Source: Alphaproteobacteria bacterium (GTDB lineage: Bacteria > Pseudomonadota > Alphaproteobacteria > SMXQ01). From it: a stretch of 64,000 nt of DNA. This document shows, piece after piece, positions 44,724 through 62,800 of the stretch. The stretch covers positions 1 through 64,000 of the forward strand of contig WHSO01000002.1 in assembly GCA_009380075.1 (NCBI GenBank), in the 5' to 3' direction. Positions within the stretch are counted from its first letter, which is position 1. The number at the start of each line of letters is the position of its first letter. Position numbers and translations under genes: made by a program. The notes beneath the pieces were generated by a model. The model saw only the letters and a program-made list of their open reading frames with translations, was not told the DNA's origin and did no database searches.

Positions 44724-44799
44724 GTCCCCTTCGTCTAGTGGCCTAGGACTTCGCCCTCTCACGGCGGCAACAGGGGTTCGAATCCCCTAGGGGACGCCA
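44724..44799 (+). tRNA. tRNA-Glu (anticodon CTC), CCA encoded
   Basis: gtccccttcgtctagtggcctaggacttcgccctctcacggcggcaacaggggttcgaatcccctaggggacgcca; loop CTCTCAC gives anticodon CTC. Confidence 0.93.
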
Positions 44800-44801
44800 A
44801 T
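44756..44801 (+). repeat. attL (46-bp direct repeat, tRNA-Glu 3' half)
   Basis: ctctcacggcggcaacaggggttcgaatcccctaggggacgccaat. Confidence 0.92.
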
Positions 44802-44880
44802 AAAATCAATGACTTGGCAATCTGTACGCCCGGCGTAGCTAACAGATATCAAATATCCCACCGCACGGAGGACCGTTCCC

Positions 44881-45348
44881 GTGGACACCAAAGCGAAACC
44901 CGAAAAGAAGCGGCGCTCGGGCATCCCAACCGGGAACGCGGGCGAGTATTTCGTCATGGGGGAGCTGCTGCGGCGCGGCTATGACGCCCAGCTGGCCGAC
45001 CGCAACACCAAGGGCTACGACCTGCTGGTCGGGCGCGCGGGCGACGGCCTTGATATGCGGCGCGTCCAGGTCAAGACCGTGCGCGCGCCGCCGTGGTACG
45101 TGCGCCGCGCTGACTTCACCGATCTGCCGGACCAGGTGACCGTCTACGTCATCATCGGTAAGGAGGACGCGAAGAAGCCTGTGCGGTACTTCATCGCGCG
45201 CAACGGCGACGTGGCCGAGCGGGTGACTGTCCCGGCGACCGGCAATTGGCCCGCGAACGGCTTCATGAGCCAGCGCGCCGTGATGGACTTCGCGGACAAC
45301 TGGGCGGCCTTGGATGCACCGGAACCCCGCCGCAAGCGCCGCGGATGA
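44881..45348 (+). CDS. PD-(D/E)XK nuclease-like hypothetical protein (element cargo)
   Basis: GNAGEYFVMGELLRRGYDAQLADRNTKGYDLLVGRAGDGLDMRRVQVKT: E...D...QVK pattern; good RBS upstream. Confidence 0.65.
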   Translation: MDTKAKPEKKRRSGIPTGNAGEYFVMGELLRRGYDAQLADRNTKGYDLLVGRAGDGLDMRRVQVKTVRAPPWYVRRADFTDLPDQVTVYVIIGKEDAKKPVRYFIARNGDVAERVTVPATGNWPANGFMSQRAVMDFADNWAALDAPEPRRKRRG

Positions 45349-45401
45349 AACCCCTCCTCGCCCTCCTGCTCATGGGCGCCGGCGCGGCCGACTCGTTGAC
45401 G

Positions 45402-45596
45402 ATGGCAAAATCCAAAAAGCCAAAGACGCGGAAAAGAGACGAAAAAAGCCAGTCCGAAAGGTTCGTCGAAAAGGCAAAGGAACTTGGCGCAGACGAAAGC
45501 GCCGAGGCGTTTGAGCGTGCCTTCAAAAAGGTTGTTCCGACGAGGCCTTATGGGAGCCCCTCCGCCAAACGGCGCATGAAGGCCCGTGATGCGTAA
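45402..45596 (+). CDS. Small Lys-rich hypothetical protein
   Basis: MAKSKKPKTRKRDEKSQSERFVEKAKELGADESAEAFERAFKKVVPTRPYGSPSAKRRMKARDA. Confidence 0.5.
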   Translation: MAKSKKPKTRKRDEKSQSERFVEKAKELGADESAEAFERAFKKVVPTRPYGSPSAKRRMKARDA

Positions 45597-46315
45597 AGAA
45601 TTTCCTCCGCGATCTCCGGATTGAAATCGCTAGTCAACAACATCAGCTTACCTTGAGTATGACTGATCTTGTTGCGCCAAGCGTTCTTTAGTCCTTCGAC
45701 GGTGCCCCGCACCTGCTCAAGAAACGCGAAGTTCTGTTGCTCGAATTGCGTCCGATCTTGGTGTTTTTTCTTAATCACTTTATCGAGCGCGCCAGCAACT
45801 GCCGTCCAACCTGATTTCGGGTCGACCACCTGCAAAAACTTTCCAAGCTCAATCAGGCCAACTTCGATCACCTGCACGCTATGAAACACCGCGGCGGCGT
45901 ATCGAGAAAAGGCAAAGCATTTTCGCGCTTCCTCAATGTCCACAACCGAGTCCGGGAAGCGGGCAATAATTTTCTCCCATCCCTCGCGCGGATTGTTGTA
46001 GTAATTTGCTTCTTGGCTGCTCACCGAGAAGAATCGGGGCCCGGACATTTCGTCAATCATCCGTTCCTGGATTTCGACGACCAGTTCTCTAAATTTCTCA
46101 TATGAACAATCGGATTTGGAAAGAAGATTCACAATTTTTTTTGCGCTAGCTCTCGATGCGTCCAAGCCAAGTTCAATACAGTCCTGCTCAATATCATTGA
46201 AGATCGACTGCGCTGTTGTCTTTAGTTCACCTTGCCACCGTCCACGATGGTTTGTAATTGTGGTTTCCATCATCCGTATTGCGGTGAGAAATAAGTGAGG
46301 GCGAAAAAGCTTCAT
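45548..46315 (-). CDS. HEPN-like hypothetical protein (element cargo)
   Basis: Helical protein with RYAAAVFHSVQVIEVGLIELGKFL and RNKISH (R-x4-H); start uncertain (46315 or 46273). Confidence 0.6.
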   Translation of the reverse strand: MKLFRPHLFLTAIRMMETTITNHRGRWQGELKTTAQSIFNDIEQDCIELGLDASRASAKKIVNLLSKSDCSYEKFRELVVEIQERMIDEMSGPRFFSVSSQEANYYNNPREGWEKIIARFPDSVVDIEEARKCFAFSRYAAAVFHSVQVIEVGLIELGKFLQVVDPKSGWTAVAGALDKVIKKKHQDRTQFEQQNFAFLEQVRGTVEGLKNAWRNKISHTQGKLMLLTSDFNPEIAEEILYASRAFMRRLAEGLP

Positions 46316-46487
46316 GATGTCCCACAGGCTCCATAGCCGGTGAGAACACAAAAGGCTGCGGGTATGTGCCGCGCTCCCGGCGGGGGTCATCATACACCCC
46401 CACTATCGGGGTGGGTACGGGAGATACAAAATGCGCCCCATGTCGTTTTCACGAACAGAAGCCGCCCGCGATGCCGGCCTGTCCGAC

Positions 46488-46928
46488 TCATAAAGCGCCC
46501 CATATGGCGGGCGATGCGACAAAGTATCCGATCACCAGCCGCTCGCGCGAATCGAAAAGATCATGGACGACGTCGTTGACAATCGCGGACGCATGTTGTC
46601 CGCCGCGCCTATGCGACTCAACGATGGCCACCACGCGCCTGCGGTCCGGGACGGGAGCGATGCCGAGAGGGATGCGCGGGGGCGCGGGTGCTCCCTGCCA
46701 GCGCCAGCCGAGGTCTTCCAGCATGGCGTACACGTGGTTGGCGGGACAGCCCTGCGTGGCGGTGAATACGCGGCAGTTGGCGCGGGCGAGTAGATGAGCG
46801 GCGACCGACGGGTAGGTGAACCCGAGTGCGCGCGCGATGGCGCGGGCCGCGCAGTCGCCGGTGCCGCGTGGCAAGTCGGGAGGCCTTCCCCCGTCGTCGT
46901 AGGCGTAACCGAGCATGGCGATCCTCAA
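46488..46928 (-). CDS. Hypothetical protein, cysteine-peptidase-like
   Basis: GTGDCAARAIARALGFTYPSV (GDC/RA motif) and QHASAIVNDVVHDLFDS (possible catalytic His). Confidence 0.55.
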   Translation of the reverse strand: MRIAMLGYAYDDGGRPPDLPRGTGDCAARAIARALGFTYPSVAAHLLARANCRVFTATQGCPANHVYAMLEDLGWRWQGAPAPPRIPLGIAPVPDRRRVVAIVESHRRGGQHASAIVNDVVHDLFDSRERLVIGYFVASPAIWGAL

Positions 46929-47229
46929 GGAGGGAGAAGGGAGCGGCGGGTGCGCGTCTGACGCGGTTAACGCCCCCGCCGCCCCCCGCGTCGACGGCGG
47001 CGGGGGAAGTTAGCCGCCGCCCCCACCGCCGCCTTGGCGACAACGTACTCTTACTTGCACGTCCCCGGCGGAGATTGACGACCGTGACGCGCTGCGGGTG
47101 TTGTCACGGAGACCGCCCGCTGCTCCGCCCGGCGCATCTCCACGGTGCCGGGCCCGCCCCGCGCCGCCCAGAGGAAGTAGCGCGGGCCACCGCCGGTGAT
47201 GCGTCATGGCGACACCACCGGCAAGATTG

Positions 47230-47730
47230 TCAGGCCGCCGACTGAAAGCGCTCGAACAGCGCCGGGTTTTCGCTTCTGGCGCGCCTGAGTGCGGTCACGC
47301 TATCGCACTTGTCGCGACGTTTGATCTCGCTGACCAGACTTTCGAATTCGCGTACGGCGGGCGGCTTGCGCGTTGCGTCCAGCGCTTCGGTCTCGGCCTT
47401 CCGAATCTGCCATTCGCCTTCATCATTGTACTCGTCGTGCAAATCCGGGTACTGGCGGGCCGCCTTGCTCATGACATCCGACTGCGGCATGTCGGGATGT
47501 TGAGTGGACAAGTACTTCATGGCATCTTCCAGGGTATCGAAACTGAGCGGCGCGTCGTCGCGCTGCGTGAGTATTTTGTGCATGTTGGGCTCCTGTCGTT
47601 CATCGGGGTCGAAGCGCTTCATGATGATCGCGCGGGCATGGATTTGAGCCGGGGAATCGCACGCGCTGATTTCCGAGATGGAGAACGCCCGCATAATGTT
47701 CTTGCGATGGGATCGTTTGCGCGCGACCAT
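47230..47730 (-). CDS. Phage-like protein resembling the C-terminal module of prohead protease/head-maturation proteins
   Basis: FSISEISACDSPAQIHARAIIMKR plus FESLVSEIKRRDKCDSVTALRRARSENPALFERFQ. Confidence 0.5.
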   Translation of the reverse strand: MVARKRSHRKNIMRAFSISEISACDSPAQIHARAIIMKRFDPDERQEPNMHKILTQRDDAPLSFDTLEDAMKYLSTQHPDMPQSDVMSKAARQYPDLHDEYNDEGEWQIRKAETEALDATRKPPAVREFESLVSEIKRRDKCDSVTALRRARSENPALFERFQSAA

Positions 47731-47734
47731 GGGG

Positions 47735-47917
47735 TTATCTCCTGCCGGGACGCCAGTCGTCTTTGCCGCCCCTCTCGATGGTGGCCAACTTCACGATTTT
47801 GACTTCGTCGAGATTGCGGGCGAGCGGGCCGCCGGGGACCATGTACGAACGCACCGGCGGTAGGCTCGTGCGGTTGTCGCGTCCGGGTGGGTTACGGGAT
47901 GATGTGCGGTCGGTCAT
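47735..47917 (-). CDS. Small hypothetical protein
   Basis: 60-aa ORF packed between neighbouring genes on the same strand. Confidence 0.4.
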   Translation of the reverse strand: MTDRTSSRNPPGRDNRTSLPPVRSYMVPGGPLARNLDEVKIVKLATIERGGKDDWRPGRR

Positions 47918-47921
47918 GGGG

Positions 47922-48470
47922 TCACCAATACGTGCCCGGATGTTGACGCAGGTTCATTTCTGCCTCGGCCAAGGTACGGGCACGTAATGCGTCCAGCCTC
48001 CATCTACGTGCTTCGCGGTACAAGCCCTCGGCGCGGAACTTCTCGCTTTGCGCCCATGCGCTTTCGCGCAACGCGATGGTTCGCGCGCGGCGGATCAATC
48101 TTTGGCGCACGTCAAGGGTGAGGGGATGCTCCAGGTCGTCGCGGGTGGTGCGCCTCAGATCGAACAGCGCGCGATATTCAAGTTCGAGCTCTTGGCTTTC
48201 GTAGTCATGCTCGCCCGGTCGGGTCCGGCCCAGCGTGGAGGCAATATCGGCAAGGCGCTGGTCTATGGCGCGCAATTCGGCTTTGACGGCCTGCTGGTCC
48301 TCGATCTTTACCTGCTTGAGCGATGGCGGCTTGGTCGCGGCGGGACCGGATGGACCGATGGCGACGATGCCGTTCGCTTCGCGCCACAGGGCGCGTTCGC
48401 GAAATGACGTGAATATCGGCGGGGCCGGTGGCGCACTCTTTGTCGTGCGTGTACTTATCGCGCGTATCAT
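47922..48470 (-). CDS. Hypothetical protein of integrative element
   Basis: ATGA overlap with upstream gene; MIRAISTRTTKSAPPAPPIFTSFRERALW... Confidence 0.55.
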   Translation of the reverse strand: MIRAISTRTTKSAPPAPPIFTSFRERALWREANGIVAIGPSGPAATKPPSLKQVKIEDQQAVKAELRAIDQRLADIASTLGRTRPGEHDYESQELELEYRALFDLRRTTRDDLEHPLTLDVRQRLIRRARTIALRESAWAQSEKFRAEGLYREARRWRLDALRARTLAEAEMNLRQHPGTYW

Positions 48471-49135
48471 CAGGCGTCCTCCTCGTCGTCGTCTGTTTCC
48501 CCGGAATCGATGAGCCATGGCGGCTTCGCGGGGATGAATGTCGGGTCGCCACCGAGGCGGCCATGTTCGTCAAACGCCGCGATTCCAGTCAGGGCGAACG
48601 GCTCGCGCTGCGCTGACGGCTGAGAGCGCGTCCTAGAGGCGGTATCGCGGCAGCCACCCCCCGGGGTAGCCCCAGCCCCAGAAACGCTCTGAGCATCCTC
48701 TCTCGGTCGATACCGAGGGATGGAGCGGCGGCGCTTGGGTGCGGTGTCGTCAACGTCTTCATCGGCGCGCAGGGTTCCCAGGCCATCGAGACCCCGGACC
48801 GGACCCGACGCCAGCGCCGCGCGTGCGGCGGTATCGGGATCATCACCATTCGCCACCGATTGCCTGAACTCCGCTAGTTGGTGGCCATCCATCAGTGTGA
48901 GCACGTAAGGCCAGCATGGGGCGGCGGGCTTGTGGGCTTCGCGCTCGGCGACTTCGCGGTGCACGCTGTCGAGCAACACATTCAAGTCGATGACCGCGCG
49001 CGGCCCTACGGCCGATAGGGCGCGGCGGACCTCATCGCGGTGGTTGGTATCGAGGGTGGCGAGCGCCTGCATCTGCTGGCCGACCGCATGCGCGTCAAGC
49101 TGCTTCAGGATTTGGGTGGCGCGCAGGGCAGCCAT
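48470..49135 (-). CDS. Hypothetical protein of integrative element
   Basis: Same-strand tightly packed ORF starting MAALRATQILKQLDAHAVGQQMQALATLD. Confidence 0.55.
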   Translation of the reverse strand: MAALRATQILKQLDAHAVGQQMQALATLDTNHRDEVRRALSAVGPRAVIDLNVLLDSVHREVAEREAHKPAAPCWPYVLTLMDGHQLAEFRQSVANGDDPDTAARAALASGPVRGLDGLGTLRADEDVDDTAPKRRRSIPRYRPREDAQSVSGAGATPGGGCRDTASRTRSQPSAQREPFALTGIAAFDEHGRLGGDPTFIPAKPPWLIDSGETDDDEEDA

Positions 49136-49137
49136 GA

Positions 49138-49569
49138 TTACGCAGCTTCCTCGGGAGCGGGAGCGGGAGCACGCTCACCGATCATCCAAAGCGGCGCGTC
49201 GTGGGGAAGGAGTTCGGGTGCGGGCTCGCCTTCGAGCAGACCGACGCGCTCTTGGCTGCGGCGAATTTCGCTCGCCAAGCGCAAAAGCAAGTCGGTGTCG
49301 ATAACTTCGCCGGCCGCCATCTTTGATTCCAGCCGCTCGCGTTCCATGCACATGGCCGCCAAGGCGCGGCACGTGTCAGCATGGCGTCCGCCGGTCTTGT
49401 CGAGGAAGGCCCGGAGCAAGTCCCGGAAGCGGCGCGCTGCGCGGGAGCGGCCGTCGGTACGGTCGAGGAATAGAGTCTTCCCGTTGGTGACGCGCGACCT
49501 GGCCTCTGGCTTGAAAGAAGCTGTCGCCGGGCTAGCAGCGGACGACTTTTCGTGCGATGTTTGCGTCAT
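49138..49569 (-). CDS. Phage/element-associated hypothetical protein
   Basis: KTLFLDRTDGRSRAARRFRDLLRAFLDKTGGRHADTCRALAAMCMERERLESKMAAGEVIDTDLLLRLASEIRR; start placed at MTQTSHEK. Confidence 0.6.
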   Translation of the reverse strand: MTQTSHEKSSAASPATASFKPEARSRVTNGKTLFLDRTDGRSRAARRFRDLLRAFLDKTGGRHADTCRALAAMCMERERLESKMAAGEVIDTDLLLRLASEIRRSQERVGLLEGEPAPELLPHDAPLWMIGERAPAPAPEEAA

Positions 49570-49803
49570 ATTTGCAATGATAAACCTACGCAACGGGGAA
49601 AGCGTTATTTTTGGGCGTTTTTCCGTGTTTGTCCGCACCCCGTTTACGCTGTTAGGGAGCGTAGCCGTGGGCGGCGCGCCGTCTTGTCGGGCTGGGTGCG
49701 GGGGGCGTTTTGGTGGTCTGGGTTTTTTGCGGCGGGAAGCAGGGACGTGTATCTGGGCGAGGGACGTTTCGGTAGTCTTTGACTTTTTATACACGAAGGG
49801 CGC

Positions 49804-50049
49804 TCACGCAGCTTCGGGCGGGCCATCGTCTTCTACTTTTTTGCCGGGTGGGCGGACGTCTGGCTGCGATTTCGATAACGCAGCAGCAGGAGCGTCCGTT
49901 TTCCGGTTCGTCGGTTTGGGCGGGGCATCTTCGCCGTCGCTTTCGCTTTCCAATCTTCGCGCGGCGCGGCGCCGCAGCTCCTCTCGCGAGATGAAGGGAC
50001 GGCTCAGGTCGGTATCGTTCGGGTACCTGTCCACTTTCTTTCCAGTCAT
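49804..50049 (-). CDS. Small hypothetical protein
   Basis: MTGKKVDRYPNDTDLSRPFISREELRRRAARRLES...; packed minus-strand operon. Confidence 0.5.
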   Translation of the reverse strand: MTGKKVDRYPNDTDLSRPFISREELRRRAARRLESESDGEDAPPKPTNRKTDAPAAALSKSQPDVRPPGKKVEDDGPPEAA

Positions 50050-50069
50050 CAGTTCACCTTCCGCATCAA

Positions 50070-50345
50070 CTACCCATCGGGGGCGGTGCTTGCCCTTCGC
50101 TTTATCTGGCGTCGCTTGGCGGTATTGTCGACGACGAGGCGCGGCCGAAGGCGCTCCTCTATCGAAGCGATACGCGAACGCAGGTCTGGATGTTTGTCGA
50201 GGAAGCGGTGCAGCCTACCGAGTTCCTCGCCGAGTTGCCGTCTCCGGGTCGCAACGGCAACCAGCCGGTCTACCAACTGCTGTTCGGGGCCCTTGTAACG
50301 GAAGCGGACGGTTACCTTTCGGTCGGGACGACGTCTTTCCATCAC
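50070..50345 (-). CDS. Small hypothetical protein
   Basis: MMERRRPDRKVTVRFRYKGPEQQLVDRLVAVATRRRQLGEELGRLHRFLDKHPDLRSRIASIEERLRP. Confidence 0.5.
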   Translation of the reverse strand: MMERRRPDRKVTVRFRYKGPEQQLVDRLVAVATRRRQLGEELGRLHRFLDKHPDLRSRIASIEERLRPRLVVDNTAKRRQIKRRASTAPDG

Positions 50346-50401
50346 TTTCCTCCTCTTCCTGTTCTCGCGAAGCGAAGCAATCGCGGCGGTTGCCGCGTAA
50401 C

Positions 50402-50437
50402 TCTCATAGAAGTTTCTCTCATACAGTTCTTCTCATA
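50402..50437. repeat. Three TCTCATA direct repeats
   Basis: ctctcatagaagtttctctcatacagttcttctcatacga; starts 50402, 50417, 50431. Confidence 0.6.
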
Positions 50438-50493
50438 CGACGCACCCGATTCGGTGTAAGTGCTGGCGCCGCAACAACTTGCGCAATTTCGGG

Positions 50494-50569
50494 CCACCCG
50501 TAAGGACGCCGTTCCGCCACCCGTAAGGACGCCGTTTCAGCCCCCGAAACCACCCGTAAGGACGCCGTT
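50494..50569. repeat. Three 20-bp iteron-like direct repeats ccacccgtaaggacgccgtt
   Basis: Identical copies at 50494-50513, 50517-50536, 50550-50569 (start spacing 23 and 33 nt). Confidence 0.8.
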
Positions 50570-50572
50570 TCC

Positions 50573-51691
50573 TCATGCGCGCAGCCGCGCCAGCAATCCC
50601 GCCGCCCGCCGCCGCGCGCCGTCGTGCTCAAAAGCGCGCTGCGTTTCGCGTTCGCGCTGCACGGCCTCGTGCCGTTCCTCGATCTCGTCTGCCGTCAGGC
50701 CGTCGCTGGCTCCGGGGTGCGCCTTCTCAACCGGCGCGGCCGTGCGGGCGGCCGCCGCTATGATCCGGATGCGCGTGTCATCGCCGGGTGCGGGTGCGAT
50801 GCGGAAGATGACCGCAAGGCCCAGCGCCCGCGCGTGCCGATTGACGCAGTCGAGCGCAGCGTCGATCTTGTGGTTGACGTCCGCCGCCCCCCGCGCCGAT
50901 AAGCCCAACCGCTCGACGAGCGCGTCCATGCGCATCGCTGGCCCGCCCCTTCGCACGTCCGCGCCATGTAATACAAGCCAGAGCGCCGCCACGGTGGCAC
51001 CCCCCCGGCGCGTCGGGAGCGGCCAAGGCACCTTCCCGAACTGGCCGCGCGGCAGCCACGCGTCCCCGACCGTGAGAAATACCGCGCGGTTTTCCAGGCG
51101 TAGGGTTGTCAAGATCGGAGACCGCTTGCCGATGTCGCGCGTGAGCCGTTGCAGGGCGGGTACAAGCATCGCCGCCGAGCGGGCGGAGTAGACCAATCCC
51201 GCACGGCGCAGGATTTCGCGGCGCGATATCTCGACTTCTATGTCGGCACCGGGATCAATTTTGGCACCGGGCCGACCCGCGCGCCGCCGGTCGTGGTATG
51301 CCGCACTCCCGGCGCCGCTGATTAAATCGCTCCCGACTTCGAACCCGTTGTTGGTTACGCGGTACATCTGCTCGGGCGTCAGGGCCGCGCGCGCGGTCTT
51401 GATTGCGTCCCTGCCAGCGCTCCACGCGACGGCATGGAGGTCCTCGGCGGTCGCCTGTCTCGCCGTCATGATGAGCGCGCCCGCGACAGCCAGCTCGAAA
51501 ACTGTGAGCCCAACTTCCGGTGCGTCGTCGCGATGGCGAAGGGGCGGATTCCGGAGCACGGCGCGCGGAAAGATTACGAAGCCGGATAGCGGCTTTTGTG
51601 CGGGCTTCGCGCGCTGTTTCGGCACGTAGCGCGGGACGCCGCGACGTGGCGATGGACGCGCGGCTTCGGCGCGCCTGTCAGCTTTCGTCAT
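50573..51691 (-). CDS. Hypothetical protein, possible replication-initiator-like (Rep)
   Basis: 372-aa ORF directly abutting the iteron-like repeats; C-terminal half suggestive of winged-helix content (MRMDALVERLGLSARGAADVNHKIDAALDCVNRHARALGL). Function inferred from context. Confidence 0.5.
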   Translation of the reverse strand: MTKADRRAEAARPSPRRGVPRYVPKQRAKPAQKPLSGFVIFPRAVLRNPPLRHRDDAPEVGLTVFELAVAGALIMTARQATAEDLHAVAWSAGRDAIKTARAALTPEQMYRVTNNGFEVGSDLISGAGSAAYHDRRRAGRPGAKIDPGADIEVEISRREILRRAGLVYSARSAAMLVPALQRLTRDIGKRSPILTTLRLENRAVFLTVGDAWLPRGQFGKVPWPLPTRRGGATVAALWLVLHGADVRRGGPAMRMDALVERLGLSARGAADVNHKIDAALDCVNRHARALGLAVIFRIAPAPGDDTRIRIIAAAARTAAPVEKAHPGASDGLTADEIEERHEAVQRERETQRAFEHDGARRRAAGLLARLRA

Positions 51692-52004
51692 CAGCTTGCG
51701 CGCCTCCTCCGCCGCGCGCGAGGAGTATTGCGGCGAAGGACGCGCAGGCGGCGCGCAGGCCGACGATATCCTCGGCCGTTTGGCCCGCTAGTTCTGTGGC
51801 GTGAGACGCGAGTGTCGTAACCGCTGCGGGGTAGCCCGCGTTATTGGCGATCACCACAGAGCATTCCTCAAGCTCTTTGAGATTAATTGTCGCACGGTAC
51901 AGAACGCTGGCAATTTCTTCGAATGCTGTTTCTGACATCGACGTTGCGCGTTTGGCGCCCTCTTCACGGTTTGGCATCGTCGTTCTCCTCCGTTGGATTT
52001 CCAC
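51678..52004 (-). CDS. Hypothetical protein
   Basis: Overlaps the start of the 372-aa ORF; MSETAFEEIASVLYRATINLKELEECSVVIANNAGYPAAVTTLASHATELAGQTAEDIVGL. Confidence 0.5.
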   Translation of the reverse strand: MEIQRRRTTMPNREEGAKRATSMSETAFEEIASVLYRATINLKELEECSVVIANNAGYPAAVTTLASHATELAGQTAEDIVGLRAACASFAAILLARGGGGAQADDES

Positions 52005-52062
52005 GCACTATTCGATCTCCCACCGTTCGCGCGTGCGCTGGGCGAGGGCGGCGAAATTCAGA

Positions 52063-52335
52063 TCAGGATCGGTTTTCGTATTTCTTTTCGCGCTCTTTGC
52101 GCCACGCGGCTTCGGCGCGGCGTGTGATCGCGATCCGATTGGCGCTACAACGCATAATTTTGGGGGCTTTACCGGCGTTGCGGATGGCGTAAAACGCCGA
52201 CCGCGAAATTCTGCCGTTACGCCGACAGAATTCCGCAATCGTGAGGGCCGGGCCGTCGAGATTTTCGGCGGTGGCGTCGGAGCCGGAATCGGGATCGGGG
52301 TCGGGATCGCTATCGGGATTAAGTCTGCGGACCAT
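52063..52335 (-). CDS. Excisionase / AlpA-like HTH DNA-binding protein
   Basis: LTIAEFCRRNGRISRSAFYAIRNAGKAPKIMRCSANRIAITRRAEAAWRKERE, typical Xis/AlpA pattern. Confidence 0.7.
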   Translation of the reverse strand: MVRRLNPDSDPDPDPDSGSDATAENLDGPALTIAEFCRRNGRISRSAFYAIRNAGKAPKIMRCSANRIAITRRAEAAWRKEREKKYENRS

Positions 52336-52467
52336 TGGGGCCTCCTAGCGTGGGGCGCAACCTCTCCACTACGGCAGCAGTTGCGTGCACGCTTAGGAAA
52401 CCCCGAAACGGCCCGGACCGCTACCGTCCGCGGATCGCGGGATTGGAGGGCGGGAACGGAGGGCGTG

Positions 52468-52896
52468 TTACGACGTCGGGGGCTGGCGCTTCTTCTGGCG
52501 GCGGGCGCTGCCGTGCTTGCCGCTGAGGTATTTTTGCAGCGTCTCCGGGTCGGCGACGCCGTAGACACGCGCGGCGCTTTCGACGGCCTCGTACCGATTG
52601 CGGCCGAGTTCGACTTCGCGCTTCACGGCGTCGGCGGCCCACAGCAACCGGCGCGCGGCATCGGACAGGTCATAAGCAGGCGTGGGACGCCCGCCTTGCG
52701 GGCGCTTCAAATTGTAACGGCCCAGCAGGTCCGCGATGAGCCAGCGCGCATCGGCGGGCAGGGGGGCGTCGGACTTCAGGAGCGCGACGAGCGGTGCCGC
52801 GTCGCGGGTGCGGTCAACGGCCCGCAGGGCATCGATCCACGGCTGCACGTCGCCCCCGGGGAAGAGCCAGCGCGCAAATAAGAGTCGCCTCACCAT
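52468..52896 (-). CDS. Hypothetical protein downstream of the integrase
   Basis: MVRRLLFARWLFPGGDVQPWIDALRAVDRTRDAAPLVALLKSDAPLPADARWLIADLLGRY...; ATGGTGA overlap with integrase stop. Confidence 0.6.
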   Translation of the reverse strand: MVRRLLFARWLFPGGDVQPWIDALRAVDRTRDAAPLVALLKSDAPLPADARWLIADLLGRYNLKRPQGGRPTPAYDLSDAARRLLWAADAVKREVELGRNRYEAVESAARVYGVADPETLQKYLSGKHGSARRQKKRQPPTS

Positions 52897-54245
52897 TGCT
52901 TGCCTACACCCCCGGCCGCAAACGGGACGACGCCGGGTTCGGTGGCGGGCACCAGCGGCACCACCGCCCGCGCCGCCATCTCGTCGAGACCGTAGGCAAT
53001 CCATGCGGCGTAGTGAACCTCGATCATCTTGGTGCTGGTGTCGTGGATTTTCGCCACCAGCGCAATCGGCAGACCGGCGCGGAGGCCCCTTACGATGCTT
53101 GAATGCCGCAAGGCATAGGGAATGACGTCTGGCGCCTTCGCCCGCTCGCGGATCCCCCGCCACGCCCGGGTCAGCTCGGCCCCCGACTGCCACGCCCCGC
53201 GTCGGTCGCGAACCCAGCGGATGCGTGGCCCCGGGACCTGGACGTGCTGCCAGCGTTCCAACAGCGGCGCGCTCTTGGCGCGCCCCGTCGTCGCCGGTAG
53301 CAACGCGTCGAGCACGTCGCGGCCGACCGGCACCGGAATGCGCTCCACCTTCCGGCCCTTGCCCTTGCGGGACGGCGGCAGCAGAAGGCGGCCTTTGTCG
53401 CGCTGGACGTCGCCGACCAGCATCCGCGCTACCTGCCCGAACCGGGCACCCGTCGCGGCCAAGACGACTACGAGCCGGAAAAGGTCGCCGCCCGCCTCGC
53501 GCTCGTCGTCCACTTCCCGCGCCGCCCTGATGAGCGCCCCGACCTGGGCGTCTGTCAGGATCTGGTTGTCGCGCGCGCCCGGCTCTGCGTCGTCGGGGCG
53601 TTCGGGCGCGCGCAACCCGTGCTTGATGGTCGCGGCGAAGTCGGCCCCCAGCCGCTTCCTGTGGATCCAATAGGCGGCGTTGAGCGCGGCGCGGAAGTCG
53701 CTCGTCGTCCGCGCTACGGTCGAAGCCCGCAGGGTGGGCGGCAACGCGGCGCGCCACGCGGTCAGCGCGTCCTCGTCCAGCTTCTCGAGGGTGGTCGCCG
53801 CCAGCTTGTCTCCCAAGACATAGCGGGTGAGGCGCGTGGCGGCGTCCGACCGCACAGCGCGTCCGCGCCGCGCGGCCTCGCGCGTGTCGCGGAAGGTGAT
53901 GTAATCCTCAACCACCTTGGCCACGGTCGGAAGCGCGCCGAGGCCGACCGCCTTGTGTGCGCGCGCCACCGCCTCCGCCCGCGCCTTGGCCTGGGCTTGG
54001 TCGAAGGAGAGCACCAGAACGCCGTCGGCGTCGGCGAGGTCATCGGCGATGCCGAGCCCTTCGGTCGCGTAGCGCTGGTTGCCGAGGTAGCGCCGCACCC
54101 ACCACGTGCCGTTCTTGCCCGCGATGCGGCGGTAGCCGAGGTGCAGCCCCCGCTCGACGCCCCGCCAGTAGATGTTGCCACGCGGCTTCAGCTTCGCGCG
54201 TGCGCTGCGGGAGCCGATCTGTGCGTCCTTCACCACCCGTGCCAT
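52890..54245 (-). CDS. Tyrosine-type site-specific integrase
   Basis: LVVVLAATGARFGQVARMLVGDVQ (box I Arg) and IPYALRHSSIVRGLRAGLPIALVAKIHDTSTKMIEVHYAAW (box II with Tyr); next to attR. Confidence 0.88.
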   Translation of the reverse strand: MARVVKDAQIGSRSARAKLKPRGNIYWRGVERGLHLGYRRIAGKNGTWWVRRYLGNQRYATEGLGIADDLADADGVLVLSFDQAQAKARAEAVARAHKAVGLGALPTVAKVVEDYITFRDTREAARRGRAVRSDAATRLTRYVLGDKLAATTLEKLDEDALTAWRAALPPTLRASTVARTTSDFRAALNAAYWIHRKRLGADFAATIKHGLRAPERPDDAEPGARDNQILTDAQVGALIRAAREVDDEREAGGDLFRLVVVLAATGARFGQVARMLVGDVQRDKGRLLLPPSRKGKGRKVERIPVPVGRDVLDALLPATTGRAKSAPLLERWQHVQVPGPRIRWVRDRRGAWQSGAELTRAWRGIRERAKAPDVIPYALRHSSIVRGLRAGLPIALVAKIHDTSTKMIEVHYAAWIAYGLDEMAARAVVPLVPATEPGVVPFAAGGVGKQW

Positions 54246-54394
54246 GTCCCGTGCCCTCTCTGGCCATATTCAATATTCCGCAAATATAAGGGGGCATACG
54301 CGGAAACGCTAGCCTATACGCGGACGGGCGGAAGTGGCGGAATTGCTGGCTTTTCGGTAAACGCGGGCAAACGCGGACAGTCCGAACGCCCGCT

Positions 54395-54440
54395 CTCTCA
54401 CGGCGGCAACAGGGGTTCGAATCCCCTAGGGGACGCCAAT
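54395..54440 (+). repeat. attR (46-bp direct repeat, tRNA-Glu 3' fragment)
   Basis: ctctcacggcggcaacaggggttcgaatcccctaggggacgccaat, identical to 44756-44801. Confidence 0.92.
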
Positions 54441-54558: not shown

Positions 54559-57344
54559 ATGCGCCTTTCCTGGAACGAGATCAGAGCGCGGGCGGCTACC
54601 TTTGCCCGTGACTGGGCTGGCGAAGGCTATGAGAAGGGCCAGACGCAGCTTTTCTACCGGGATTTCTTCGACGTGTTCGGGATGCCGGTCCGGCGCGTGG
54701 CGACGTTCGAAGAACCGGTCAAGAACCTAGGCGACAAGCGCGGCTTTATCGACCTGTTTTGGAAAGGCGTCCTTCTGGTCGAGCAGAAGAGCGTGGGTCT
54801 CGATCTCAAGAAGGCGAAGGCACAGGCCCTCAATTACTTCCCGGGATTGAAGGACGCGGATCTTCCCCGCTATGTCCTGTTGAGCGACTTCAAGTCCTTT
54901 GAACTGTACGACCTGGAGGAAGACGAACAGGTCGTCTTCCCGCTCTCCGAACTTCCGCGGCATGTCGAGAAGTTCGGTTTTATCCTTGGCGTCCAGAAAC
55001 GCTCATTCAAGGATCAGGATCCGGTAAACATCGAAGCGTCCGAATTGGTCGGCAAGCTTCACGATGCCCTCAAGGACTCCGGTTATTCGGGGCACGATCT
55101 TGAACAATTCCTCGTGCGTATCGTGTTCTGTCTTTTTGCGGACGACACCGGCATCTTCGAACCACGTGGAATCTTTCTCGATCTTCTCGAAACGCGAACG
55201 CGGGAGGACGGCTCCGACCTTGGCGGATGGCTCACGCAACTCTTTCAGGTTCTGAATACGTCGGAGGAGGAGCGTTCCAGGAATCTCGATTCGGACCTCG
55301 CACGGTTTCCTTACGTGAACGGTGACCTGTTCCGTGATGCTTTGCGCATTCCTTCCTTCGACTCCGGGATGCGCCAACGCCTCCTCGATACCTGCCATTT
55401 TGACTGGTCGCTCATTTCTCCAGCCATTTTCGGCGCCCTGTTCCAGTCCGTGATGAACAAGCAGGAACGCCGTGCGCTCGGCGCGCACTACACCACGGAA
55501 AAGAACATTCTCAAGGTGATCTGCCCGCTGTTTCTGGACGACCTGCGGGCGGAATTCACCCGTCTCAAGGCAAGGCGGGACAGCCGGCGGATGCCGGAAT
55601 TGCTCGCCTTTCAGGAAAAGCTTGGGCGCCTGCGATTTCTGGATCCCGCCTGCGGATGCGGGAACTTCCTGATCATCGCTTACCGAGAGTTGCGCGCCCT
55701 CGAAATCGACGTCCTGCGGGAAGTTCGCCCCAAGGGGCAATACGACGCGCTGGCCGATCTCCTTTCAATGATCAACGTGGACCAGTTCTACGGGATCGAG
55801 ATCGGAGAATTCCCCGTTCGCATCGCCGAGGTTGCGCTGTGGATGATGGACCACATCATGAACAACCGACTGAGCCTTGAGTTCGGCGAAACCTACGTCC
55901 GCATACCCCTTCGTAAATCCCCGCATATTCTTCATGCCGATGCGCTGGAGGTGGATTGGGCCTCTCATCTGCCGCCGGACCAATGCTCCTACGTCTTCGG
56001 CAATCCACCGTTTATCGGCGCGAAGTACCAGAGCCTGGAGCAGCGCGCGCAGGTGCGCCGGATAGCCGCGCTGAGCAAGAGCGGCGGCACGCTCGATTAC
56101 GTCACCGCGTGGTTCATTGCCGCGGGGAAATACGTGCAGAGAGGGAACGCGAAGATCGGATTCGTTGCGACCAACTCGATTACCCAGGGCGAGCAGGTGG
56201 CGCAGCTCTGGCCGGTCATCTTCGACCGTTGCAAGGTGGAGATTGCCTTCGCCCACCGCACATTCGCATGGGGATCGGACGCTCGCGGGAAGGCTCATGT
56301 CCATGTCGTGATCATCGGTCTTGCCAAAGGCGCCGACGCGCCAAAGGACAAGCGGTTGTTTTCCTACGACGATATCAATGGAGAACCGCACGAAAGTATA
56401 CATGCGGTGCTTACGCCCTCTACCTTTTCGATGCCAGCGGCTTGACTGACCCGCATATCGTCGTGCGTGAAGCAAATGAACCGCTGAATGGATTGACTAG
56501 ACTAATTATCGGATCAAAGCCCATCGATGGCGGTCACTATATCTTTACGCAAGAACAGAAAGATGCATTTCTAGCCCAGGAACCGGCGGCGGCACCGTTA
56601 ATGCATCCGTATGTCGGAAGCCATGAGTTTCTCAATGGCAGCATTCGTTACATTCTCTACCTAGCAAATGCTTCGCCTGACTTTCTGAACATTCTTCCAA
56701 GAGTCAAAGACCGTATCGCGGAAGTAAGAGTGTTTCGCCAAAAGAGCAAGAGCAAACCGACACGAGAGCTCGCAAAGTATCCCACGTCGTTTCATGTAAA
56801 CGTGGTTCCAGCCAATCCCTTTTTGGTGATTCCTGAGGTCAGTTCGGAGCGCAGGGAATATGTACCTATTGGTTGGATGGAGCCACCAACGATTCCGAGC
56901 AATCTGGTCCGGATTATTGAGAATGCGAACAAGTCCCTATTTGCTCTCTTGACTTCGGCCATGCACATGAGTTGGTTGCGGCACGTTGGTGGTCGTCTCA
57001 AGAGCGACTATCGCTATTCCATCGGCCTCGTGTACAACACCTTCCCCGTGCATCAAATAAAGGTCGACAATTGGGAGAAACTCGAACCGCTGGCGGAGGC
57101 AGTGCTGGCCGCACGGGCGGCGCATCCGGGGGCAACACTTGCGGATTTGTACGATCCAGACCTTATGCCTCCTGATCTCAGGAGGGCGCATAGCTCGATC
57201 GACCGTGCGGTCGATCGCCTCTACAGGCCCAAGGGTTTCACCTCGGATCGCGAGAGGGTGGAGCACCTGTTCGGACTCTATGAAAAAATGGTGGCGCCGT
57301 TGCAAGCTTCGCCACGGGGTAGGAAACGCATACGTAAACGATAA
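54559..57344 (+). pseudogene. MmeI-like Type IIL/IIG restriction-methyltransferase, split by one frameshift at ~56416-56421
   Basis: D..EQK nuclease-like motif (IDLFWKGVLLVEQK), FLDPACGCGNFL and NPPFIGA methylase motifs in frame of 54559..56445; C-terminal TRD-like region continues in frame of 55956..57344 (YLFDASGLTDPHIVVREANEPLNGLTRLIIGSKPIDGGHYIF). Confidence 0.82.
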
Positions 57345-60586: not shown

Positions 60587-61060
60587 CGGGACTGGCCGGC
60601 GCAAGCGTTCCCCGGATGTCCGTGCGCGAAAGGTCATGACAGTCTTCGGCCTGGCTTCTTCAGGGGGCATTCAGGCGGCGCATTCGGTTCGCGGGGTCAA
60701 GGGCGGGTCCGCATCGCCGCCGCGGCGGTCCGGATACCTGAAATGACGGGAGATTCCGGGGCTTTATTCCGCAACCACGGCGCGATCCCGATGCGCCCGG
60801 ACGGGCGGTCCGGGAGGCGTCGCCCGGCTCCGGGAAGTGGTCCGAAGCGATTAAGAGGACTTTATTAACCAAAAGCGAACATCCAAACAAATGACGCAGT
60901 ATTGGACAGTCCATCGTTAACCAATTAACAGTTTTTTCATTGATTCACTATTGGCCGGGGGACATTATTATCTTTGAATGTGCGTACAGCGTGGGCTGTC
61001 ATGAACGTCTTTTATGTCATCGACCGGGCGCACGGGAAACCCCTAGCGAAAGATGAAGCG

Positions 61061-61648
61061 ATGTTTGGCCGTGGCGATCTGAAGATCAAGGAATTCACGA
61101 AACTGTCGAACGTGAAATCACGCATCGACAAAACGCGGGAAGCGACCCGGCGGATTCCCGACAACGACGACCCTTCCGGGGTTTCACGCCCGTTGGACGC
61201 GTCGGACGCGCCGGCACCGAAGCCGCGGGGCCTGCATGAAGGGCATGTCCTGATCGGCGAAGGCGTGAAGATCGTCGGCGAAATCCGCGATTGCCGAAAG
61301 CTCGAAATTCACGGCACGGTCGAAGGCGACCTCGAGGCCGAAGAGCTCATCGTTCACGAAAACGGCCTGCTTAAGGGGAGCATCAAGACCGACAGGGCCG
61401 AGGTCAACGGCACCATCGACGGCGACATCAGCGTGACGCATCTGCTCGACCTCAAGTCGAAAGGCTCCGTCGCCGGCACCACCCAGTATGGCGAGATTTC
61501 GGTCGAGACGGGCGGACGGATCGTCGGCAAGGTCGATGATCTGGACGACCGGAACGGCAGGCCGGCACGCCCCGCCAATACGGTCGGCAACGAAAGCGCC
61601 GCCGACTTCGGCTTCCGGAGTCTCAACAAGGGTTCGACTTCGTCCTAG
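61061..61648 (+). CDS. Bactofilin family protein
   Basis: LIGEGVKIVGEIRDCRKLEIHGTVEGDLEAEELIVHENGLLKGSIKTDRAEVNGTIDGDISVTHLLDLKSKGSVAGTTQYGEISVETGGRIVG. Confidence 0.88.
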   Translation: MFGRGDLKIKEFTKLSNVKSRIDKTREATRRIPDNDDPSGVSRPLDASDAPAPKPRGLHEGHVLIGEGVKIVGEIRDCRKLEIHGTVEGDLEAEELIVHENGLLKGSIKTDRAEVNGTIDGDISVTHLLDLKSKGSVAGTTQYGEISVETGGRIVGKVDDLDDRNGRPARPANTVGNESAADFGFRSLNKGSTSS

Positions 61649-61852: not shown

Positions 61853-62200
61853 CTTCATTGGCAGCTCAATATGATCACAGGTCCTTCGTCCCGGGGCGAA
61901 ACTTCCAGCCTGCGCCTCCACCTGCCGCTCCCGGTGGTCGCCCGTCAGGGTAAAGAGGAGGTGAACCGGGGCCACGCCACGCCCGGCGCCGGCGCCCGGC
62001 ACCCAGCGGAATCAGGGGCTTGGTGTGCTCCCGGCGGTTTCCTCGTCGGGCCGGCGGCGGGGCCGGGCCGGTGGGCTGCCCGGCGCGGCGGGAAAGTTAT
62101 CTCCATCCCTTAACCCCTCGATAAGAAAGGCTTCGATAGTGTGGTGGTTCGTCAGTCAGCCGGTTGCCCGCAGAGAAACCCAACGGCGAAAGGAAGAGCC

Positions 62201-62800
62201 ATGTTTGGTCGCAGCGATCCGAAAACCAAGGAACCCATGAAACTGTCAAACCTGAGATCCCCGGTCGAGCCGCCGCCGGAGAGCTGTGCGAAAATGGACA
62301 ACGATCTGGATCTTTCAGACATTTCACGTCCCGCCGACGTTCAGCTCCGCCGGCTGACGTCACTGTCCGACGACCGGCACGAACGCCCGGCGCCGCCTCC
62401 GCAGGGCAAGCACGAAGGGCACGTCCTGGTCGGCGAAGGGATCAAGATCGTCGGCGAAATCCGCGATTGCCGGAAGATCGAGATTTACGGTGTCGTCGAA
62501 GGCGATCTCGAGGCCGAGGAGCTGATCGTTCACGGGAACGGCCTGCTCAAGGGAAACGTGAAGACCGATCGGGCCCAGATTCATGGCTCCATCGACGGCG
62601 ACATCACGGTCACGCATCTGCTCGACGTGAAGTCGAAGGGCTCGGTCGCCGGCAGGACCCAGTACGGCGAACTCTCGGTCGAGACGGGCGGACGCATCGT
62701 CGGTACGCTCGATGACCGCTCCGCCCGGAACGACGACCGGGCAGGATCGAATCCGGTCGATGCCGGTGACCGGCCCTTCAAGGCAAGCGCAACGGCCTGA
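62201..62800 (+). CDS. Bactofilin family protein (tandem paralog)
   Basis: LVGEGIKIVGEIRDCRKIEIYGVVEGDLEAEELIVHGNGLLKGNVKTDRAQIHGSIDGDITVTHLLDVKSKGSVAGRTQYGELSVETGGRIVG. Confidence 0.88.
   Translation: MFGRSDPKTKEPMKLSNLRSPVEPPPESCAKMDNDLDLSDISRPADVQLRRLTSLSDDRHERPAPPPQGKHEGHVLVGEGIKIVGEIRDCRKIEIYGVVEGDLEAEELIVHGNGLLKGNVKTDRAQIHGSIDGDITVTHLLDVKSKGSVAGRTQYGELSVETGGRIVGTLDDRSARNDDRAGSNPVDAGDRPFKASATA

What the first reader, a model, noticed from the sequence alone, without database searches (positions are those of the whole stretch)
44756..54440. Intact tRNA-Glu(CTC)-integrated ~9.7 kb element of unfamiliar gene content
Seen directly: a 46-bp perfect direct repeat flanks the region; the left copy completes the functional tRNA and the right copy is an orphan 3' fragment. 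A tyrosine integrase abuts attR, followed by an excisionase-like HTH gene and a long minus-strand run of small genes. Knowledge: tyrosine integrases often target tRNA 3' ends. No conjugation genes, terminase, major capsid or tail genes are recognisable, so this resembles a phage satellite or plasmid-like integrative element rather than an ICE or full prophage.
Basis: partly seen in the sequence, partly recalled or inferred. Interest (0 to 1): 0.82.

Follow-up and report, generated by a model that had tools for sequence, protein, structure and literature searches.

The report
tRNA-Glu-integrated island with orphan genes
A 9.6-kb piece of foreign DNA sits in a bacterial glutamate-tRNA gene, put there by a recombinase from a widespread group that targets this tRNA; it is a real mobile element of an ordinary kind, but most of its genes match nothing known and how it moves between cells is unresolved.

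Summary
tRNA-Glu(CTC) (44724-44799) and an orphan copy of its 3' end (44756-44801 / 54395-54440, 46 nt, perfect) bracket 9,639 bp. A tyrosine integrase lies beside attR, followed by about 12 minus-strand genes. No terminase, capsid, portal, relaxase or T4SS gene was recognised.

New evidence shows it is an integrative element. Of 13 other integrases found by similarity alone (about 26-52% identity), 11 have a tRNA-Glu 3' fragment or gene 152-201 bp from their start, so this is a tRNA-Glu-specific integrase clade. Two examined payloads are unrelated to this one: a 13.2-kb PrimPol/AAA element in G274 and a RecT-bearing prophage-like region in G061. Same-family genomes have the tRNA without this element. 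In 6 of 10 the contig breaks within 500 bp downstream of the tRNA (0 of 10 upstream), which suggests a variable hotspot.

Cargo includes a HEPN-like protein (conserved Rx4H) and a PD-(D/E)XK-like nuclease. A 372-aa orphan beside three 23-bp repeats is the only replication candidate; it has no homologue, and structure prediction failed.

Best reading: a non-conjugative tDNA genomic island, possibly a minimal phage satellite or integrative plasmid. Satellite status is unproven. It is a new member of a known kind.

The parts
44724..44799 (+). tRNA-Glu(CTC), functional copy; its 3' part is in attL
   Evidence: ARAGORN and Rfam
44756..44801 (+). attL core, 46 nt
   Evidence: perfect direct repeat
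54395..54440 (+). attR core, orphan tRNA 3' fragment
   Evidence: perfect direct repeat
44881..45348 (+). 155-aa PD-(D/E)XK-like nuclease, cargo candidate
   Evidence: PDDEXK_5 E 0.009 and phrog_5018 E 4e-6; weak
45548..46393 (-). 281-aa HEPN-like protein, cargo candidate
   Evidence: plasmid relatives, invariant WRNxxxH
46488..46928 (-). 146-aa protein shared with phages, function unknown
   Evidence: phrog_3754 E 7e-6; two large phages
47230..47730 (-). 166-aa orphan ORF
47922..48518 (-). 198-aa orphan ORF, weak coding signal
   Evidence: not chosen by the codon test
48470..49135 (-). 221-aa orphan ORF
49138..49794 (-). 218-aa orphan ORF, weak coding signal
49804..50049 (-). 81-aa orphan ORF
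50070..50345 (-). 91-aa orphan ORF
50493..50571 (.). three 23-bp direct repeats, possible origin repeats
   Evidence: no match in shuffles; found only here in this genome and 20 relatives
50573..51691 (-). 372-aa orphan, replication-protein candidate
   Evidence: position beside the repeats only; no homologue, failed structure models
51678..52004 (-). 108-aa orphan ORF overlapping the 372-aa gene
52063..52335 (-). 90-aa HTH protein, excisionase/activator candidate
   Evidence: weak Cox-like PHROG E 0.05; relative next to the G061 integrase E 5e-9
52468..52896 (-). 142-aa ORF overlapping the int stop by 7 nt
   Evidence: ATGGTGA junction; no family
52890..54245 (-). tyrosine integrase, 451 aa
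54246..54394 (.). int-attR spacer with four ACGCGG copies, possible arm sites
   Evidence: 0 of 2000 mononucleotide shuffles reach four

Best explanation
It is an integrative, non-conjugative genomic island of 9,639 bp that entered the 3' half of tRNA-Glu(CTC) by integrase-mediated recombination at a 46-nt identity block shared by attP and attB, restoring the tRNA (shown by anatomy). The integrase belongs to a clade dedicated to this tRNA (shown by comparison). The overlapping 142-aa ORF and the HTH protein are probably its directionality and activation partners (inferred). The excised circle may be copied by the 372-aa protein at the nearby 23-bp repeats (weak inference). The nuclease-like and HEPN-like genes at the far end are probably anti-phage or conflict cargo (inferred). 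Transfer would need a helper phage or conjugative element, since no transfer genes are recognisable (inferred).
For: 46-nt perfect att pair. Integrase beside attR. 11 of 13 integrase relatives carry a tRNA-Glu 3' sequence at 152-201 bp; all 13 matches in 199,338 positions scanned lie at integrase starts, counting the window's own locus and one locus held twice. G274 element of the same kind in tRNA-Glu(CTC) with a 47-nt repeat. Uninterrupted site in G008 and excess of contig breaks downstream of tRNA-Glu in relatives. 372-aa gene absent from 95 relatives. Cargo.
Against: No read data, so excision is not shown. No relative with an empty site and the same right flank was found. Half of the genes are orphans and some have weak coding signal, so part of the interior could be decayed. 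The 372-aa protein has no demonstrable link to any Rep family.
Confidence: 0.85

Rival explanations
1. A minimal phage satellite that works like PICMI or P4: excised on helper infection by int, the int-overlapping gene and the AlpA-like HTH protein, replicated by its own initiator, packaged by a helper phage, with anti-phage cargo at the end away from int.
For: Order int - overlapping gene - HTH - replication candidate - cargo resembles PICMI115, where int, iolg and alpA are all needed for excision (PMC10803314). Small size; one phage-shared gene; HEPN and PDDEXK cargo. A distant integrase relative in Cupriavidus lies beside toprim, helicase and major capsid genes.
Against: No primase, terminase or capsid-remodelling gene recognised. 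No portal or Terminase_6N match in the host genome, although a virulent helper would not be visible there. Gene order is a weak argument.
Confidence: 0.3
2. An integrative plasmid: a small iteron-type replicon that acquired an integrase.
For: A 372-aa orphan directly followed by three 23-bp repeats unique in the genome.
Against: No homology to any plasmid protein even at E 10; repeats lie downstream of the gene; no partition or mobilisation gene recognised; structure models unusable.
Confidence: 0.25
3. A decaying prophage or larger island reduced to its integration module and leftovers.
For: Weak codon signal in the 198-, 218- and 81-aa ORFs. The same integrase clade sits in a prophage-like region in G061.
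Against: att sites perfect, nearly all genes on one strand with several short gaps or overlaps, no recognisable broken phage structural gene.
Confidence: 0.2

Closest known systems
tDNA-integrated genomic islands (Islander class, PMC4383910)
   Same: tyrosine integrase inside, functional tRNA gene plus displaced 3' fragment in correct order and orientation, length in range; islands there without phage or T4SS genes are common and their mobility unexplained
   Different: not compared with that database directly; most genes are orphans
PICMI satellites of Vibrionaceae (PMC10803314)
   Same: int with an overlapping small gene, HTH/AlpA-like gene next, small size, direct-repeat ends, cargo at the far end
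   Different: targets tRNA-Glu, not fis; no DUF3987/DUF5906-type primase; no helper known
G274 tRNA-Glu(CTC) element (L058, 13.2 kb)
   Same: integrase 51-55% identical, same tRNA and same end of it, same int-att distance (164 and 167 bp)
   Different: payload unrelated: Prim-Pol/AAA, AAA_25, HTH_17, RelE-type toxin; only int shared by tblastn
Prophages and islands in Sinorhizobium meliloti tRNA genes (PMC11476347)
   Same: direct-repeat att sites at tRNA 3' ends, 46-bp att block at one hot spot; tRNA-Glu(CTC) is named there among the tRNA genes studied for integration
   Different: no element of that study was compared directly here

Membership tests
tDNA-integrated genomic island (Islander criteria) | intact tRNA gene and displaced same-orientation 3' fragment | tested here: met
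tDNA-integrated genomic island (Islander criteria) | tyrosine integrase gene within the bounds | tested here: met
   PHROG integrase E 4e-24; box I, box II and tyrosine region align with relatives
tDNA-integrated genomic island (general) | absent from relatives, empty site seen | tested here: met
   372-aa gene absent from 95 relatives; uninterrupted tRNA-Glu site in same-family G008; none found with the identical right flank
tRNA-Glu-specific integrase clade | tRNA-Glu 3' sequence next to the integrase start | tested here: met
   window plus 11 of 13 relatives; exceptions L054, L056 and the distant Cupriavidus L076
PICMI phage satellite | primase (DUF3987/DUF5906) with AlpA and int | tested here: not met
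   no primase family in any element protein
PICMI phage satellite | integration at fis | tested here: not met
   target is tRNA-Glu
phage satellite in general | helper-dependent induction and packaging | not testable with these tools
   needs phages or reads; no portal/Terminase_6N in the host assembly
cf-PICI | own capsid and terminase genes | tested here: not met
   no such family hit
ICE / IME | relaxase and, for an ICE, T4SS genes | tested here: not met
   no hit in Pfam or NCBIfam for the proteins tested; an orphan relaxase cannot be excluded
iteron plasmid | Rep initiator of a known family with adjacent repeats | tested here: inconclusive
   repeats present, no Rep homology, models at pLDDT 41-42
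HEPN superfamily (281-aa protein) | Rx4-6H motif with a polar residue after R | tested here: met
   WRNxxxH invariant in five proteins (definition in PMC3710099); fold not tested

The most novel reading that the evidence does not exclude
The element represents a new type of minimal phage satellite or integrative plasmid, with a replication initiator of an undescribed family acting on the 23-bp repeats, moved by helpers and carrying HEPN and PD-(D/E)XK anti-phage genes, in a tRNA-Glu hotspot served by one integrase clade that prophages and islands of diverse content share.
Probability: 0.2. Interest if true: 0.6.

Novelty: new member of a known kind. Interest (0 to 1): 0.38.

Why it matters
Many tRNA-integrated islands have no explained route between cells. 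This one is small, cleanly bounded and almost free of known genes, so each orphan gene can be tested one by one. The integrase clade gives a handle for finding further tRNA-Glu elements, because a tRNA-Glu fragment lies 150-200 bp from the gene start in most relatives whatever the payload. The HEPN- and PD-(D/E)XK-like genes are candidates for undescribed defence functions.

Tried and rejected
Full prophage or ICE: rejected, no structural, relaxase or T4SS family in the element proteins tested. Chance repeat: rejected.

A tRNA-Glu fragment in G008:C131 first looked like a second integrated element. It is an assembly overlap of exactly 141 nt between contigs C111 and C131, i.e. an uninterrupted site. 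C131 starts exactly at nt 33 of the tRNA, the left edge of the window's repeat. That would fit an attR variant in part of that population, but a strain SNP there would look similar, so it is kept only as a hint.

Structure prediction of the 372-aa protein, whole and as a 178-aa fragment, gave pLDDT 41-42 and no usable model, so no fold search was run. PDB sequence searches for the 372- and 281-aa proteins gave nothing. Weak phylum-wide hits to the 372-aa protein (E 3e-4 to 9e-3, short or with stops inside) were judged chance. Viral-contig scans with the 372-, 451-, 218- and 221-aa proteins found no relative. PADLOC found nothing in the seven element proteins scanned. Rfam found only the tRNA. 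The genome-contig scan with the integrase returned one relative, in a MAG labelled Acidobacteria, cut by the contig end after 100 aa.

A search with the 237-aa right-flank neighbour gave no hit in ten same-family genomes, so the exact empty site with this right flank remains unseen. An earlier count said 12 of 14 integrase relatives; the correct count is 11 of 13.

Full report
Observation. ARAGORN places tRNA-Glu(CTC) at 44724-44799. The stretch 44756-44801 (the last 44 nt of the tRNA plus two bases) recurs perfectly at 54395-54440, 9,639 bp away. The identity stops at the base to its left, and the next best match to the 46-mer in the window has 19 mismatches. The left copy lies in a complete tRNA and the right copy is an orphan. 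This is the signature by which tDNA islands are defined (PMC4383910).

Gene content. From attR leftwards on the minus strand the element holds the following. First is a 451-aa tyrosine integrase (PHROG integrase E 4e-24, Pfam E 1e-5). A 142-aa ORF follows, whose ATG overlaps the int stop (ATGGTGA), then a 90-aa HTH protein (Cox-like excisionase PHROG, only E 0.05), a 108-aa ORF, and a 372-aa orphan with three 23-bp repeats just beyond its stop. Next come ORFs of 91, 81, 218, 221, 198, 166 and 146 aa and a 281-aa protein. A 155-aa gene on the plus strand lies next to attL. Pfam, PHROGs, NCBIfam and PADLOC give almost nothing for these. The 146-aa protein matches phrog_3754 and has relatives in two large phages and one IMG/VR contig. 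The 155-aa protein has a weak PD-(D/E)XK match. The 281-aa protein has relatives on plasmids of Komagataeibacter, Sphingopyxis, Croceibacterium and Rhizobium. In the alignment of five, W-R-N-x3-H is invariant, fitting the HEPN Rx4-6H active site with a polar residue after R (PMC3710099). The HEPN fold itself was not tested.

The integrase defines a tRNA-Glu clade. Searching 385 genomes of the class with the integrase alone gave 12 further loci in 11 genomes, and the genome-contig scan gave one more. I then looked near each integrase start for the tRNA-Glu 3' sequence (27-mer, up to 5 mismatches): 11 of the 13 have it 152-201 bp away. In ten it is an orphan fragment with foreign sequence to its left; in G061 it is the complete tRNA. 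All 13 such matches among 199,338 positions scanned fall beside an integrase start (the window's own locus and one locus held twice are included). L054, L056 and the distant Cupriavidus protein lack it. The best relative, in G274 (55%, 51%), lies in an element bounded by tRNA-Glu(CTC) and a 47-nt repeat 13,180 bp apart. Its other genes include a Prim-Pol/AAA protein, an AAA_25 protein, an HTH_17 protein and a RelE-type toxin; only the integrase is shared with the window element by tblastn. In G061 the integrase lies next to a complete tRNA-Glu and a region with RecT and a C5 methyltransferase, with an HTH protein related to the window's (46% over 56 aa, E 5e-9). So the clade is coupled to the target and not to one payload.

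The site in relatives. All ten same-family genomes have this tRNA, and on its left side several share the window's genes. Downstream they differ. G010 has metabolic genes. G001, in the same genus, has a 440-aa protein of unknown family. G008 has an uninterrupted site: contigs C111 and C131 overlap by exactly 141 nt across it. Six of the ten contigs end within 500 bp downstream of the tRNA and none within 500 bp upstream; from contig lengths 0.5 would be expected, P about 1e-6 under a uniform model. That model ignores other reasons why assemblies break, but a variable, repeat-carrying site is the simplest reading. The 372-aa protein was absent from 95 relatives.

Mechanism. Shown: att anatomy, integrase, clade-wide target, absence in relatives. 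Inferred: excision by int with the overlapping ORF and the HTH protein. In the Vibrio satellite PICMI115 the integrase, a gene overlapping it by 4 nt, and AlpA are all needed for excision (PMC10803314). The resemblance here is of order and overlap only; sequence homology of the small genes was not tested. Weakly inferred: autonomous replication from the 372-aa protein and the 23-bp repeats. The repeats occur three times here and nowhere else in this assembly or in 20 relatives. But the protein has no match among 72,556 plasmid records even at E 10, and two structure predictions failed (pLDDT 41 and 42). Four ACGCGG copies in the 149 bp between int and attR are plausible integrase arm sites.

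Helper question. No element protein matches packaging, capsid, relaxase or secretion families, and the host assembly (97% complete) has no Phage_portal or Terminase_6N match. Other terminase families were not searched. Satellite, integrative plasmid and reduced prophage all remain possible; I give the satellite reading about 0.3. These readings are sub-types of, or alternatives to, the main statement, so the confidences do not sum to one.

Verdict. A real, cleanly bounded integrative island, ordinary in kind and unusual in gene content. New member of a known kind; interest 0.38.

Noticed in passing
window 54559-57344: MmeI-type restriction-modification gene starting 119 bp right of attR, split into two overlapping frames (54559-56445 and 55956-57344), GC 0.56 against 0.66-0.68 in the flanks; possibly the remnant of an earlier arrival at the same tRNA.
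   Followed up: partly
L032 3115-4437: In same-genus G001, downstream of tRNA-Glu, a 440-aa protein with motifs that by eye recall family-A DNA polymerase palms (ELDIRASHL, VHDSLIV); no Pfam hit. A different occupant of the same site.
   Followed up: partly
L076 (NZ_CP032520.1 391525-402000): Cupriavidus plasmid region with a 26-27% identical integrase followed by HTH, toprim, helicase and major capsid protein genes: looks like a capsid-encoding satellite.
   Followed up: no
L037, downstream of tRNA-Glu (G005): Three copies of a CCACCCACGTTT-like repeat shortly after the tRNA, resembling integrase arm sites.
   Followed up: no
L036/L035 junction (G008 C111/C131): Contig break whose 141-nt overlap begins exactly at nt 33 of tRNA-Glu, the left edge of the window's att repeat; could reflect an occupied site in part of that population.
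   Followed up: partly
window 60974-61648 and 62141-62800: Two nearby paralogous proteins that look like bactofilins in the right flank (by eye).
   Followed up: no
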